The notes under the pieces are model-generated. The model did not search any database, was not told the DNA's origin, and saw only the letters and a program-made list of their open reading frames with translations. Positions 5,772 through 48,447 of a stretch of 64,000 bases of DNA are shown here, one piece after another; the first letter of the stretch is position 1, and each line of letters opens with the position of its first letter. The stretch comes from Gloeomargarita lithophora Alchichica-D10 (GTDB lineage: Bacteria; Cyanobacteriota; Cyanobacteriia; Gloeomargaritales; Gloeomargaritaceae), in the NCBI RefSeq assembly GCF_001870225.1, contig NZ_CP017675.1, positions 1,333,531-1,397,530 of the forward strand, given 5' to 3'. Both the position numbers and the translations under genes were made by a program.

Positions 5772-6011
5772 AGGACATCTTTATTTATTTGAACTATAGC
5801 TAAGTAGGGTAAGGTTGTCGCCTCAAGATACTGGGGAACCAATGCGGGGCTGCGCCCTGCGACCCATATTATGTCAATCTTTGCGTGTTTAGCTATAACC
5901 AAAAATCTCATCGCTGGAATGGAGAAATTACGGAGAACCATACACCGCAGGTGCTTCTGGGGCGGGGGGTGCCCCCTGCGACCGCTAATTTTCAATTAAT
6001 AGAGGTGCCCT
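5772..6011. mobile_element. C-type element with a B-type element nested inside
   Basis: Outer ends are AGGACATCTTTATTTATTTG and TAGAGGTGCCCT. Inside, at 5797-5895, a 99-bp B-type element is flanked by TA. Without it and one TA, the outer element is about 139 bp and resembles the C-type copy at 61617-61773 (both contain AAATCTCATCGCTGGAATG, a CATACACCGCAGGTGCTTCT block and the GC core). Its right end touches the stop codon of the STAS gene. Confidence 0.72.
5797..5895. mobile_element. B-type miniature element (99 bp), nested
   Basis: Begins TAGCTAAGTAGGGTAAGG and ends GCGTGTTTAGCTA, with TA duplicated at 5795-5796 and 5896-5897. Core GCGGGGCTGCGCCCTGCGAC resembles the core of A and C types. 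Diverged a little from the three identical copies at 33640, 38220 and 60943. Confidence 0.82.
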
Positions 6012-44364: not shown

Positions 44365-44470
44365 TTATCCACAGCGGAGTCTGAAATGGGGATAATAACG
44401 CTGGAGCCTGTGGATAACTGGGGGCAACCTGTGGATAACTTGGGGATAACTGGGGATAACCTGGGGATAA
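44365..44470. other. DnaA-box cluster, candidate replication origin
   Basis: Within 106 bases there are six DnaA-type boxes. TTATCCACA at 44365-44373 is perfect. TGTGGATAA at 44409-44417 and 44430-44438 are perfect in reverse. TGGGGATAA at 44441, 44451 and 44462 each have one mismatch. The last four start 11, 10 and 11 bases apart, one helical turn. To the left, 44190-44360 is AT-rich with repeated TTGTTACA. Genes from 33.8 to 44.2 kb run leftward, and most genes to the right run rightward, as expected around an origin. dnaA itself is not in the window. The first codons of the next frame lie in the cluster. Confidence 0.7.
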
Positions 44471-45642
44471 CTGGGTCGGAATGTGACAAATTGTTACAAG
44501 TACCCCTGCGGCCTGGGACGGTGGCGGAATTGGGGGATACTCTGCGGCAGGGTGGGGGGCAGGCGGTGGGGTTGCAGGGGCAAAACAGCAAGGCTCACTG
44601 GGGAAATCCCAGGAATGGCGGTTTAACAATTATTAGTACAGCCGCATTAAATCGTATTTTAAGCTACGAGGTGGCGGATTTGGTGGTCACGGTGGAAGCC
44701 GGGGTGAAGTGGGTAGATTTACAGGGGATGTTGGCGGAGCGGGGGCAATTTTGGCCGGTGTATCCCCTTTATCCTGACCAGGCCACCATCGGGGGGATGA
44801 TTGCGACGGCGGACGGGGGAGCGTGGCGCCAGCGGTACGGCGGGGTGCGGGATGGGGTGTTGGGATTGCATTGGGTGCGCCCGGACGGTGCCGAGGCCAA
44901 GGCGGGGGGGCGGGTGGTGAAAAACGTGGCGGGTTACGACCTGATGAAGCTCTTGACCGGGGCTTGGGGCACCTTGGGCTGTATTACCCAGGCCACCTTG
45001 CGCTTGTATCCTTTGCCCCCGGTGACCCGCAGTTTTTTGGTGCAGGGGGCGGATTTGGCTGTTCTGCGCCAGGGGCTATTGGACTCGGCACTGCAACCCA
45101 CCGCCTGGGATGTGTTGTCAACGGCTTTGGTAGGCCAATTGGGCTATCCGGCGCGGGTAAGTTTGTGGTTAGAATTGCGGGGGACTGGGGTGACGGTGGC
45201 GGAACAGGTGGAGCGGTTGGCAGTGCTATGCCCAGGGGTCACGATTAAGGAAATTGCCCCGGAGACGATCGATCAATTAACCAAAATCCTTAGCCTACCG
45301 GGGACGCAACCCCAGGTTTTGTTAAAAATAGGCGTACTGCCCGCCCGCACCGTCGCATTGGCAGAGTATCTCCAGCAGATTGTTCCCCAGGCGTGGGTGC
45401 AACTGCACAGCGGGGTGGGGTTGGGGCGATGTGTGCTGGCTGCGGTGCCCGCCAATTTCCCAGAATTAGTGACTCAAATCCGGGAATTTGTCCAGCCCCA
45501 GGGGTTTGTGAGTGTGGTAGCCGGCCCGAATATCCCTGACCGCTGGGATGTGCGGGGCAATGGTTTATCCCTGATGCGCCGGGTCAAGGAGCAACTCGAC
45601 CCCCAACACCGGCTGAATCCAGGGCGTTGGTTGTGGGATTAG
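44386..45642 (+). CDS. FAD-binding oxidoreductase, GlcE-like
   Basis: Up to 418 residues. The FAD-binding (PCMH-type) part is clear: GLQGQNSKAHWG, LVVTVEAGVKWVDLQGMLAE, FWPVYPLYPDQATIGGMIAT and GGRVVKNVAGYDLMKLLTGA. The C-terminus ends HRLNPGRWLWD, as in glycolate oxidase subunit GlcE. It probably acts with GlcD/GlcF-like partners on glycolate or lactate; none adjoin. The annotated ATG (44386) would translate the DnaA boxes (EPVDNWGQPVDNLGITGDNL), so the true start is likely later, for example TTG 44491-44493 or nearby. Confidence 0.83.
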   Translation: MGIITLEPVDNWGQPVDNLGITGDNLGITGSECDKLLQVPLRPGTVAELGDTLRQGGGQAVGLQGQNSKAHWGNPRNGGLTIISTAALNRILSYEVADLVVTVEAGVKWVDLQGMLAERGQFWPVYPLYPDQATIGGMIATADGGAWRQRYGGVRDGVLGLHWVRPDGAEAKAGGRVVKNVAGYDLMKLLTGAWGTLGCITQATLRLYPLPPVTRSFLVQGADLAVLRQGLLDSALQPTAWDVLSTALVGQLGYPARVSLWLELRGTGVTVAEQVERLAVLCPGVTIKEIAPETIDQLTKILSLPGTQPQVLLKIGVLPARTVALAEYLQQIVPQAWVQLHSGVGLGRCVLAAVPANFPELVTQIREFVQPQGFVSVVAGPNIPDRWDVRGNGLSLMRRVKEQLDPQHRLNPGRWLWD

Positions 45643-46301
45643 GGGTTCCATACATCCCCCCCAAAACCGGCTGGGAAGTAGCTTTGCAGATAACTTAAAG
45701 CCAACCGTTTGGTTTCTTTGACTAATTGTTGCCGAAATGCGGGTTTTTGACCGAGGGAGAGCCACAGTAACGTCCCGATGGCTTTCACTAACACAAAGGC
45801 CATGACTTGATCATTGGCTGGCTCTAAGTTGGCAGACCATCGGGCTAAAGCCTGGGATAAATCCCGAATTAACTTGGCATCGGTTGCCTCATCAATGGCT
45901 TCCAATTCACGGATAGTTCCCTGCACCTCCATAAAAATGGCATAGTAGCTGGGGTTCTCGGAAAAAAAGCGGTCGGTGGTGTCAATCAACTGCTCCACAT
46001 AATCCGCTAGGGAAGTTGGGACTGGCTGTATCTCATGGATCGCCGTCAACTGTTGATGGAGCATTTCCCCGTAGCGTTCGGCTAAGGCTTGCAGAATCGC
46101 CGTCTTATCGGGGAAAAACTGGTAGAGCGACCCGATGGGGACTTGGGCTTGAGCGGCAATCCCATTGGTCGTCGTTGCGGCGTACCCCTGCTGAGCAAAC
46201 AATTCCTCCGCCACATCCAAAATCCGATTCACCCGCTCCTGACTGCGAGCTTGCCGGGGCTGGCGGCGCATTCCACTTGCGGTTGCGGGGCGATCAGCCA
46301 T
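45639..46301 (-). CDS. TetR-family transcriptional repressor
   Basis: 220 residues from ATG 46301 (MADRPATASGMRR). The N-terminal helix-turn-helix is RILDVAEELFAQQGYAATTT followed by NGIAAQAQVPIGSLYQFFPD (~25-70). The rest is the helical ligand domain. It is divergent from the Coq4-like gene, and three matching dyads lie in the 137-base gap, so it probably represses both itself and that cluster. The ligand is unknown. Its stop overlaps the glcE-like stop (TTAG at 45639-45642). An open frame continues 39 bases upstream but would include operator 1. Confidence 0.92.
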   Translation of the reverse strand: MADRPATASGMRRQPRQARSQERVNRILDVAEELFAQQGYAATTTNGIAAQAQVPIGSLYQFFPDKTAILQALAERYGEMLHQQLTAIHEIQPVPTSLADYVEQLIDTTDRFFSENPSYYAIFMEVQGTIRELEAIDEATDAKLIRDLSQALARWSANLEPANDQVMAFVLVKAIGTLLWLSLGQKPAFRQQLVKETKRLALSYLQSYFPAGFGGDVWNP

Positions 46302-46329
46302 TGGTGTTCTCCTGGGTTTTAACAAAAAA

Positions 46330-46403
46330 GTGAGCATCACTCATATATTCCTTGACAAAACATGAGAGTTACTCGTATTGTAATAAACATGAGGAAAACT
46401 CAT
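46330..46403. promoter_or_regulatory. Three TetR-type operator dyads
   Basis: GTGAG-N5-CTCAT at 46330-46344, ATGAG-N5-CTCGT at 46362-46376 and ATGAG-N5-CTCAT at 46389-46403. All have the same 15-base layout and arm sequence. They fill the gap between the divergent repressor and the Coq4-like gene. Confidence 0.75.
46352..46381 (+). promoter_or_regulatory. Sigma-70-like promoter of the Coq4-like cluster
   Basis: TTGACA at 46352-46357 and TATTGT at 46376-46381 are 18 bases apart. Operator 2 fills the spacer and operator 3 sits just past the -10, which would block polymerase binding. Confidence 0.6.
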
Positions 46404-46437: not shown

Positions 46438-47094
46438 ATGATTGCCGAAACAGCAAACCTAGCACCGATGATGGCCTTACAACCCTACCTTGCCCTGCTT
46501 GCGGGGGATGTAGAGCTAAATGTGGTGGGAGAAATGAGCGATGCTTTGCTAAACACATCTTCTTTTGCATTGGCGGTGAGACATTTGCAGGCCAATGATC
46601 AATGTGCCGAGTTGATTGCCGAACGCTACATGGCAGAGGATCACGACATCGCCCATCTTTTAACTTACCCGACCGATTCCTTGGGATTTATCTATGCCCA
46701 ATCCATGCAAGCCAAGGGGTTTCGGGCAGAGGATTTGTATAAAGATGTGCCAATTTATTCTGATGCCAGCTATGTGGAAGCACGCCTCAGCCAAACCCAT
46801 GATATTTGGCATATCGTCACCGGTTTTGGGGTTTCTGAAATCGAAGAGATTGGCCTCCAAGCCTTTCATTTACCCCAATTTCCCTATCCTTTGGCGGTGT
46901 CTTTACTTTCCAGTAGTTTGATGTCCAGTTTACTGTTTGCTCCTGACCAGTTACCCGATTTGTTGTCAGCGATCCACACCGGATGGGTGATGGGAAAAAC
47001 CGCAAAATCCTGCTTTGCTCAGAAGTGGGAAGAGCGTTGGGACAAGCCTTTAGCCGAATGGCGGCACGATTTGCAGATTTCACCGCTGATCTAA
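46438..47094 (+). CDS. Coq4-family protein
   Basis: 218 residues. QTHDIWHIVTGFGVSEIEEI (~residue 120) carries the HDxxHx11E zinc motif of Coq4, recently linked to decarboxylation/hydroxylation of the quinone ring in ubiquinone synthesis. Cyanobacteria make plastoquinone, not ubiquinone, so the substrate here is unclear. C-terminal HTGWVMGKTAKSCFAQKWEE is also family-like. First gene after the TetR operators; the small membrane gene and ABC membrane gene follow on the same strand. Confidence 0.85.
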   Translation: MIAETANLAPMMALQPYLALLAGDVELNVVGEMSDALLNTSSFALAVRHLQANDQCAELIAERYMAEDHDIAHLLTYPTDSLGFIYAQSMQAKGFRAEDLYKDVPIYSDASYVEARLSQTHDIWHIVTGFGVSEIEEIGLQAFHLPQFPYPLAVSLLSSSLMSSLLFAPDQLPDLLSAIHTGWVMGKTAKSCFAQKWEERWDKPLAEWRHDLQISPLI

Positions 47095-47504: not shown

Positions 47505-48447
47505 ATGGTTCGTTTGCTTAGTAGAATTTTTAACACGAACTATCCATCTTTGCTTGTCACCTATGGACTAACATTACTAGAAAATATCCTGGAATTGCTT
47601 TATCCTCTGCTAATTGGACGGGCAATTGATGATCTACTCCAGGAAAAATACATGGGCATTATTTCTTTGGCTAGTTTGTGGCTTCTTCACACGGGCATCG
47701 AAGTGGCTAGGAATATTTTTGACACGATTACATTTACCAGAATTTACAATAATTTAGTAGTCTCCGTCGTTTTAGATCAGCATCGAAAAGGAGTTGCATC
47801 TTCACAAATTGCCGCCCGCTCGGCATTGTCTAGGGAATTTGTAGATTTCTTTGAGCAAGATGTTCCTAATTTAGTGACTTCTATATTTGGTTTAATTGGG
47901 TCGTTGGTTATGCTTTTATTGTTTGACTTACGGATAGTCGGCTATTGTCTGCTGATAATTATTCTTATTACTTTGATGCAAAAATTTTTTATTAAAAAAT
48001 ATCTTGGTTTTAACTATAGCTAAACACGCAAAGGTTGACATATATGGGTCGCAGGGCGCAGCCCCGCATTGGTTCCCCAGCATCTTGCGGCGACAACCTT
48101 ACCCTACTTAGCTATATCTACTCAATAATCAGTTAGAAAAGGAAGTGGAAATCCTAACAAAAGGCAATCCAGGATCAATAAATAAACACTACAAAGTTTT
48201 AGCTGACAACCGCATCAAATTATCTAATATGACTGCGCTCAACTCCAGTGTAACAGAGCTGTTCATTATTCTAATGTTTATGATAATTCTTTTGCGGACA
48301 AGATTCTTAAATCTGCACACGGGGGATGTCTATGCAGTCATTGCTTACGCTTGGAACTATCGCCAATCATTAGATATATTACCGGTCAGTATTCAGCAAC
48401 TCAGCCGCTTAAAAGATATTGGCAAAAGATTGAGAGTTAATGAATAA
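47505..48447 (+). pseudogene. ABC transporter membrane domain, split by a B-type element
   Basis: The first part (172 codons) has membrane segments NYPSLLVTYGLTLLENILEL, ISLASLWLLHTGIEVA and LVMLLLFDLRIVGYCLLIII, ending LGFNYS* inside the element (48017-48114). With the element and one TA removed the frame continues LGFNYLLNNQLEKEVEILTK to the stop at 48445-48447 (about 281 residues), giving LFIILMFMIILLRTRF and LHTGDVYAVIAYAWNYRQSL. This is a six-helix ABC membrane subunit without an ATPase domain. It is probably inactive unless the element is lost. An intact ATPase partner is not adjacent. Confidence 0.8.
48017..48114. mobile_element. B-type miniature element (98 bp) in the ABC membrane gene
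   Basis: TAGCTAAACACGCAAAGGTT to CCTTACCCTACTTAGCTA with TA at 48015-48016 and 48115-48116. It is reverse-oriented relative to the copies at 33640 and 38220. Confidence 0.87.

What the first reader, a model, noticed from the sequence alone, without database searches (positions are those of the whole stretch)
46330..46403. Three matching operators positioned to repress a divergent pair
Dyads RTGAG-N5-CTCRT at 46330, 46362 and 46389 lie between TetR and the Coq4-like gene. The second fills the spacer of a TTGACA/TATTGT promoter, the third follows the -10, and the first faces the TetR start. This predicts autoregulation plus tight control of the cluster.
Basis: partly seen in the sequence, partly recalled or inferred. 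Interest (0 to 1): 0.55.

Follow-up and report, generated by a model that had tools for sequence, protein, structure and literature searches.

The report
Three conserved repressor sites beside Coq4
Three copies of a short DNA palindrome between a TetR repressor gene and a Coq4-like gene are kept at the same spacing beside related repressors in other cyanobacteria, so they are very probably its real binding sites, an ordinary kind of switch with an unusually clear evolutionary record of how site and protein differ together.

Summary
The three dyads are exactly where stated, and a motif built only from relatives scores them far above anything else in the window. In the 3.05-Mb genome the flanked motif, at up to 3 mismatches, occurs at these three sites only. 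TetR orthologs in other cyanobacteria carry the same array: 28 of 46 rows of the same helix-turn-helix type, usual spacing 26 and 32 bp, around a TTGACA-18-TATTnT promoter of the divergent gene. That gene is most often Coq4-like (40 of 130 loci), otherwise Rieske, P450 or FAD oxidase. Repression of the Coq4-like gene by this TetR is therefore well supported, though no binding was measured. Two details change. The operator nearest tetR (O1) is probably not the autoregulatory one: 26 of 28 loci of the Arg46 clade lack it, and three target arrays in two genomes keep it where no tetR starts beside it. And no larger cluster is visible. Beyond the finding, TetR residue 46, aligned with the base-reading Arg28 of TetR(Tn10), differs together with the operator bases at +/-2 and +/-3, though as a single event on the tree.

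The parts
45639..46301 (-). TetR-family repressor gene (220 aa from ATG 46301); N46 in helix 2
   Evidence: Pfam TetR_N 8e-16, TetR_C_15 1e-20; AlphaFold model pLDDT 81.3, TetR-type fold hits; start conserved in relatives
46308..46313 (-). likely ribosome-binding site of tetR (AGGAGA)
   Evidence: sequence; 6 nt from ATG 46301 (inference)
46330..46344 (.). operator O1 GTGAGCATCACTCAT, between the divergent -35 and tetR
   Evidence: 29.5 bits; part of the triple in 28 of 46 Asn46 rows, not in the Arg46 clade
46352..46357 (+). -35 TTGACA of the Coq4-gene promoter
   Evidence: exact TTGACA in 38 of 41 anchored Asn46 loci (the anchoring itself favours near-matches)
46362..46376 (.). operator O2 ATGAGAGTTACTCGT in the -35/-10 spacer
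   Evidence: 23.9 bits; found at the anchor in 41 of 46 Asn46, 28 of 28 Arg46, 33 of 34 His46 and 8 of 8 Asp46 rows
46376..46381 (+). -10 TATTGT of the Coq4-gene promoter, spacer 18 nt
   Evidence: spacer 18 in 35 and 17 in 6 of 41 anchored Asn46 loci
46377..46382 (-). candidate -10 TACAAT of tetR, overlapping the divergent -10
   Evidence: at least 4/6 to TATAAT in 35 of 41 anchored Asn46 loci against 4.4% of random hexamers of the upstream regions; the two -10s overlap and the element is AT-rich, so this is weak; inference
46389..46403 (.). operator O3 ATGAGGAAAACTCAT, at the likely Coq4 transcription start
   Evidence: 30.1 bits; 0 mismatches to the flanked consensus
46438..47094 (+). Coq4-like gene (218 aa), with HDxxH-x11-E metal motif
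   Evidence: Pfam Coq4 3.2e-19; PDB relatives 3msq and 6e12/Alr8543; motif read from the translation, definition from passages of PMC9774615

Best explanation
The three dyads are operators of the TetR-family protein encoded next to them, and the region is a one-region repressor switch. Without its (unknown, probably lipophilic) effector, TetR dimers occupy O2 inside the -35/-10 spacer and O3 at the start site, with O1 just upstream of the -35, and block RNA polymerase at the promoter of the Coq4-like gene. The same O2/O3 pair flanks an overlapping -10 that points at tetR and most likely gives negative autoregulation. Effector binding releases the protein and the oxidative gene is expressed; in relatives a Rieske, P450 or FAD enzyme can take its place. 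Shown here: sites, their conservation, promoter geometry, partner genes, and that residue 46 and operator differ together. Inferred: binding, repression, effector class, autoregulation, which operator serves which gene.
For: Sites. Same operators upstream of orthologs of 57-76% identity; automatic count 28 of 46 Asn46 rows triple, 20 of all 30 triples with spacing 26/32. Phylum search: 7 genuine arrays in 386 genomes, 7 of 7 beside the TetR ortholog. Promoter geometry. Arrays at target promoters without a neighbouring tetR start: Coq4 in L272 (no TetR match better than E 0.057 in 7.5 kb), and in L271 before a fatty-acid-hydroxylase gene and before an L-PSP/FAD-oxidase pair. Residue 46 against operator: anchored O2, Asn46 rows pos 5 G 93%, pos 6 C 47%/T 27% (37 sites); Arg46 rows pos 5 A 93%, pos 6 C 93% (28 sites); the operator finders score no particular base at pos 5 or 6. 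In TetR(Tn10), Arg28 hydrogen-bonds guanine +2 of tetO (passages of PMC7102968); AmtR His43 corresponds to Arg28 and faces G3 (passage of PMC2723105); N46 is the second residue of helix 2 in the model.
Against: No binding, footprint or RNA data. The residue-operator association holds in 70 of 70 scored rows (43 Asn/G, 27 Arg/A) but needs one change on the (quick) tree, so it is one event. 18 of 46 Asn46 rows fail the automatic triple test: some by finder noise or one decayed site, but L158, L163 and L164 show no array and L006 only one operator. The tetR promoter has no -35 that I could see. Coq4 is not the constant partner: 30 of 130 loci have none of the six gene types tested. A further trans array that I first counted (L273, P450 + MFS in G524) has a broken tetR beside it and was withdrawn as evidence on O1.
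Confidence: 0.87

Rival explanations
1. The dyads bind a different regulator; the TetR next door is a bystander.
For: No binding data; short palindromes are bound by many families (general knowledge).
Against: The array accompanies this TetR family in other genera and on plasmids, and the operator type differs between TetR sub-clades that differ at the base-reading residue.
Confidence: 0.04
2. O1 is the dedicated autoregulatory operator of tetR, and O2/O3 serve Coq4 only.
For: O1 ends 28 nt before the tetR ATG, upstream of its RBS, and is kept beside tetR in 28 of 46 Asn46 rows.
Against: 26 of 28 Arg46 loci have only the O3-O2 pair; arrays in L272 (Coq4) and two in L271 keep O1 at 32 and 31 bp with no tetR starting beside it. 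These could still be recent copies of a tetR-linked promoter: the array in L273 does have a broken tetR beside it.
Confidence: 0.2
3. The TetR activates, or both activates and represses, the Coq4 gene through upstream O1.
For: O1 lies upstream of the -35, where activators often sit (general knowledge); FasR, a fold neighbour of the model, is named an activator by NCBIfam.
Against: O2 in the spacer and O3 at the start are classic blocking positions and are the more widely conserved.
Confidence: 0.06
4. Chance palindromes in AT-rich promoter DNA.
For: The bare core occurs at 9 places in the genome, no more strand hits than its reversed control.
Against: Motif scores, genome-wide uniqueness of the flanked sites and conservation in position.
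Confidence: 0.01

Closest known systems
TetR(Tn10)-tetO (divergent tetR/tetA control region)
   Same: Divergent repressor/target pair (recalled), 15-bp operator, base-reading residue at the start of helix 2 (Arg28, passages of PMC7102968)
   Different: Three operators; target is an oxidative enzyme, not an efflux pump; Asn at the Arg28 position and TGAG/CTCA half-sites
PfsR of Synechocystis PCC 6803 (sll1392), a TetR-family autoregulator
   Same: Cyanobacterial TetR-family protein reported to bind its own promoter, in the region 99 bp upstream of the start (PMC4092027, passages seen)
   Different: Studied for iron homeostasis; of 11 promoters tested it bound only its own; whether its operator or sequence matches this family was not tested
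FasR, SaFadR, FrrA, EthR (among the nearest solved folds)
   Same: TetR-type fold; FasR, SaFadR and FrrA entries hold acyl-CoA or flavonoid ligands by their titles
   Different: 16-25% identity; operators and targets not compared
Coq4 family protein Alr8543 (PDB 6E12)
   Same: Sequence relative; HDxxH-x11-E metal motif
   Different: Regulation of alr8543 not examined here

Membership tests
TetR-family regulator | N-terminal TetR_N HTH and TetR-type C-terminal domain | tested here: met
   PF00440 8e-16 and PF17918 1e-20, both above cut-off
TetR-family regulator | All-helical TetR fold | tested here: met
   AlphaFold pLDDT 81.3, pTM 0.75; 357 PDB matches at E <= 0.001, the 50 listed including FasR, EthR, FadR and FrrA by title
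TetR-family regulator | Binds palindromic operators overlapping its target promoter | tested here: inconclusive
   Sites present and conserved; binding not measurable here
TetR-family regulator | Released from DNA by a small ligand | not testable with these tools
   Ligand unknown
Named NCBIfam TetR equivalogs (ScbR, PsrA, FasR, KstR, AcrR and others) | Score above the curated cut-off | tested here: not met
   24 families matched at E <= 0.01, best 44 bits against a cut-off of 150; none reaches its cut-off
PfsR (sll1392) | Orthology and same operator | not tested
   Sequence not compared; paper passages only
Coq4 family | Pfam Coq4 domain above cut-off | tested here: met
   69.6 bits against 22.9
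Coq4 family | HDxxH-x11-E metal motif | tested here: met
   HDIWH-IVTGFGVSEIE-E in the translation; motif as given in passages of PMC9774615
Coq4 family | Role in ubiquinone synthesis | not testable with these tools
   That cyanobacteria lack ubiquinone is recalled, so the substrate is probably another compound

The most novel reading that the evidence does not exclude
A cyanobacterial TetR family forms a natural series of repressor-operator pairs in which one helix-2 residue (46: Asn, Arg, His, Asp) sets the operator: Asn goes with G at +/-3, Arg reads the G-C pair at +/-2 as TetR Arg28 does, and the His and Asp clades use 16-bp dyads. Swapping that residue alone, or with the neighbouring position 56, would switch operator choice and give orthogonal repressors controlling a sensor regulon of oxidative enzymes.
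Probability: 0.35. Interest if true: 0.6.

Novelty: new member of a known kind. Interest (0 to 1): 0.42.

Why it matters
It turns a sequence-only guess into a well-supported, directly testable repressor-operator pair in a cyanobacterium. It places a group of bacterial Coq4-like proteins in a regulatory setting shared with P450, Rieske and FAD enzymes and MFS transporters, which suggests an inducible response to a lipophilic compound rather than housekeeping quinone synthesis (inference). The series of operator types gives a clean case for testing how a TetR protein and its site change together.

Tried and rejected
Chance palindromes: rejected. GTG 46340 as tetR start: rejected, because ATG 46301 aligns with relatives and the stretch upstream is operator DNA. 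A wider regulon in this genome: none found at up to 3 mismatches with the flanked consensus; the second Coq4 gene (G000:C1:1974884) has no site better than 7 of 10 core positions in 400 nt upstream. A sigma-70 -35 for tetR: not seen by eye. Independent repeats of the residue-operator switch: sought on a tree, only one change found. Papers: eight searches listed nothing by title or opening of abstract on this TetR/Coq4 pair or its operator; only listings were seen, plus passages of five papers (PMC4092027, PMC4150764, PMC7102968, PMC2723105, PMC9774615).

Rows dropped before counts: of 157 loci used (158 TetR hits), 28 hits were set aside as over 97% identical, leaving 130. The loci came plus 80 regions fetched; not every match listed was fetched (some at contig ends, some partial, many of the lowest-scoring), and that list was itself cut. 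L011 was left out (no upstream DNA). In one search rows with tied or fewer than 2 G/A counts were not used (70 of 87 rows bear both traits). In one search the anchored count covers 41 of 46 Asn46 rows (37 with 15-bp sites), 28 of 28 Arg46, 33 of 34 His46, 8 of 8 Asp46; its anchor is a near-match to the divergent -35, so the -35 figures are biased upward.

Full report
What is there. The window is part of a 3,049,282-base, single-contig genome; size and relatives fit Gloeomargarita lithophora (name recalled, not given by a tool). A TetR-family gene (45639-46301, minus strand) and a Coq4-like gene (46438-47094, plus strand) diverge from a 136-bp gap. In it lie the three dyads of the finding, exactly as described, around TTGACA (46352) and TATTGT (46376) spaced by 18 nt.

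Not chance. The bare core is common: 9 distinct places in the genome, 11 strand hits, the same as the reversed control. What is unusual is the clustering and the flanks. The 6 other places are all inside predicted ORFs. The flanked consensus AAAYATGAG-N5-CTCATRTTT at up to 3 mismatches hits only these three sites in the genome; the reversed control counts 1 on each strand. A matrix from relatives alone scores them 30.1, 29.5 and 23.9 bits, next best in the window 6.7, maximum of 20 Markov-simulated windows 15.5.

Conservation. One search found 12 cyanobacterial relatives of the TetR (57-75% identity, L011 partial). Of the 11 with upstream DNA, 9 carry three operators, L007 two and L006 one; 8 of the 9 have TGTCAA (the divergent -35 read backwards) between O2 and O1, and L010 has CGTCAA. 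A triple-pattern search of 386 genomes hit 16: 7 with a genuine array (the window's included), each beside the TetR ortholog; the others, by eye, are tandem coding-type repeats; the reversed pattern hit 4 genomes. A profile search found the wider family in 120 of 388 genomes of the class at E <= 1e-40. From these and earlier loci I assembled 130 non-redundant TetR genes with upstream DNA. Among the 46 with Asn at residue 46, 28 pass an automatic triple test, 10 more show the O3-O2 pair and 8 neither; of all 30 triples, 20 have spacing 26 and 32. In 41 anchored Asn46 loci the divergent -35 is exactly TTGACA in 38 and the spacer is 18 in 35 and 17 in 6 (the anchor favours near-matches to the -35).

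What is controlled. The first recognised divergent gene is Coq4-like in 40 of 130 loci, Rieske in 32, P450 in 13, FAD amine-oxidase type in 10, GNAT in 4, MFS in 1, none of these six in 30 (representatives confirmed by Pfam). An MFS gene was found in the held stretch of 12 loci, 10 of them with Coq4 and 1 with P450 (many stretches are too short to show it). Named examples: Gloeothece verrucosa PCC 7822 plasmid (Coq4), Synechocystis PCC 7339 plasmid (P450 then MFS), Nostoc NIES-3756 plasmid (Coq4, two operators). The system is accessory: none of the 6 congeners of the window's genome has the TetR at E <= 1e-40, and plasmids carry it.

Arrays away from tetR. In G431 a triple array stands before a Coq4 gene (L272, Pfam 7.7e-24) with no TetR match better than E 0.057 in 7.5 kb; that genome's listed TetR matches lie on other contigs. 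In G523 (L271) two further arrays, 2.9 and 0.8 kb from tetR, precede a fatty-acid-hydroxylase gene and an L-PSP gene followed by a FAD oxidase. All three keep the O1 equivalent, at 32 and 31 bp. A P450+MFS array in G524 (L273), which I first counted here, has a broken tetR beside it. In the window itself, Coq4 is followed by a 92-aa ORF without Pfam match and an ABC-transporter membrane gene split by a repeat of about 105 bp; I see no larger regulated cluster.

How it probably works. O2 in the spacer and O3 at the start would block RNA polymerase at the Coq4 promoter (inference from position). The AT-rich element between O3 and O2 also reads as a -10 towards tetR (at least 4/6 to TATAAT in 35 of 41 anchored Asn46 loci, against 4.4% of random hexamers; the two -10s overlap, so this is weak). 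In the Arg46 clade 26 of 28 loci have only O2 and O3; of the rest, L181's third site is a poor match and L098 has two sites 32 bp apart. So O2/O3 probably serve both genes and O1 is an extra upstream site of the target promoter. The effector is unknown; the partner genes suggest an oxidisable lipophilic compound (inference).

Residue and operator. At residue 46, Asn goes with TGAG half-sites and Arg with TGAAC (anchored O2: Asn, 37 sites, pos 5 G 93%, pos 6 C 47%/T 27%; Arg, 28 sites, pos 5 A 93%, pos 6 C 93%); anchored sites are 16 bp in 33 of 33 His rows and 8 of 8 Asp rows. TetR(Tn10) Arg28 reads guanine +2 of tetO (passages of PMC7102968). I align Arg28 with residue 46 by eye through the preceding threonine, from a recalled TetR sequence; the AmtR table in PMC2723105 lists the Thr27/Arg28 pair of TetR against Thr42/His43 in the same way. 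By symmetry, C at pos 6 is a G at +2. Residue 46 is the second residue of helix 2 in the model. The association holds in 70 of 70 scored rows but is one change on the tree (Arg46 clade support 84), so it is suggestive, not proof, and Lys46 rows with mostly TGAG sites (15 G to 3 A) show that the code is not simply a matter of charge.

Verdict. It is a new, well-documented member of a known kind; the most interesting part is the series of operator types, which is outside the original claim.

Noticed in passing
window 48015-48122 and 5795-5865: A repeat of about 105 bp splits an ABC-transporter membrane gene (47505-48447); 45 matches to it in the genome, most at 85-99% identity (40 of 87 first-look candidates were scored). 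Looks like a MITE-type element.
   Followed up: partly
G000:C1:1974884-1975327 (L049): A second Coq4-family gene in the same genome, with no operator of this type in 400 nt upstream.
   Followed up: partly
L271:2297-5226 (G523:C9): Operator arrays of this type occur three times within 3 kb: before a fatty-acid-hydroxylase gene, before an L-PSP gene followed by a FAD amine oxidase, and between a DUF2721 gene and tetR.
   Followed up: partly
L273:3232-3692 (G524:C221): A tetR homolog in two frames, so apparently broken, beside an intact-looking triple array before P450 and MFS genes; other listed TetR matches of that genome lie on other contigs.
   Followed up: partly
G024:C59:12623-15050 (L097, L132): Two TetR homologs close together with different operator types: Arg46 with TGAAC dyads and His46 with RTGAC-type dyads, possibly insulated paralogs.
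   Followed up: no
window 45639-45642: The ends of tetR and of the convergent GlcE-like FAD oxidase gene (44386-45642) overlap by 4 bp.
   Followed up: no
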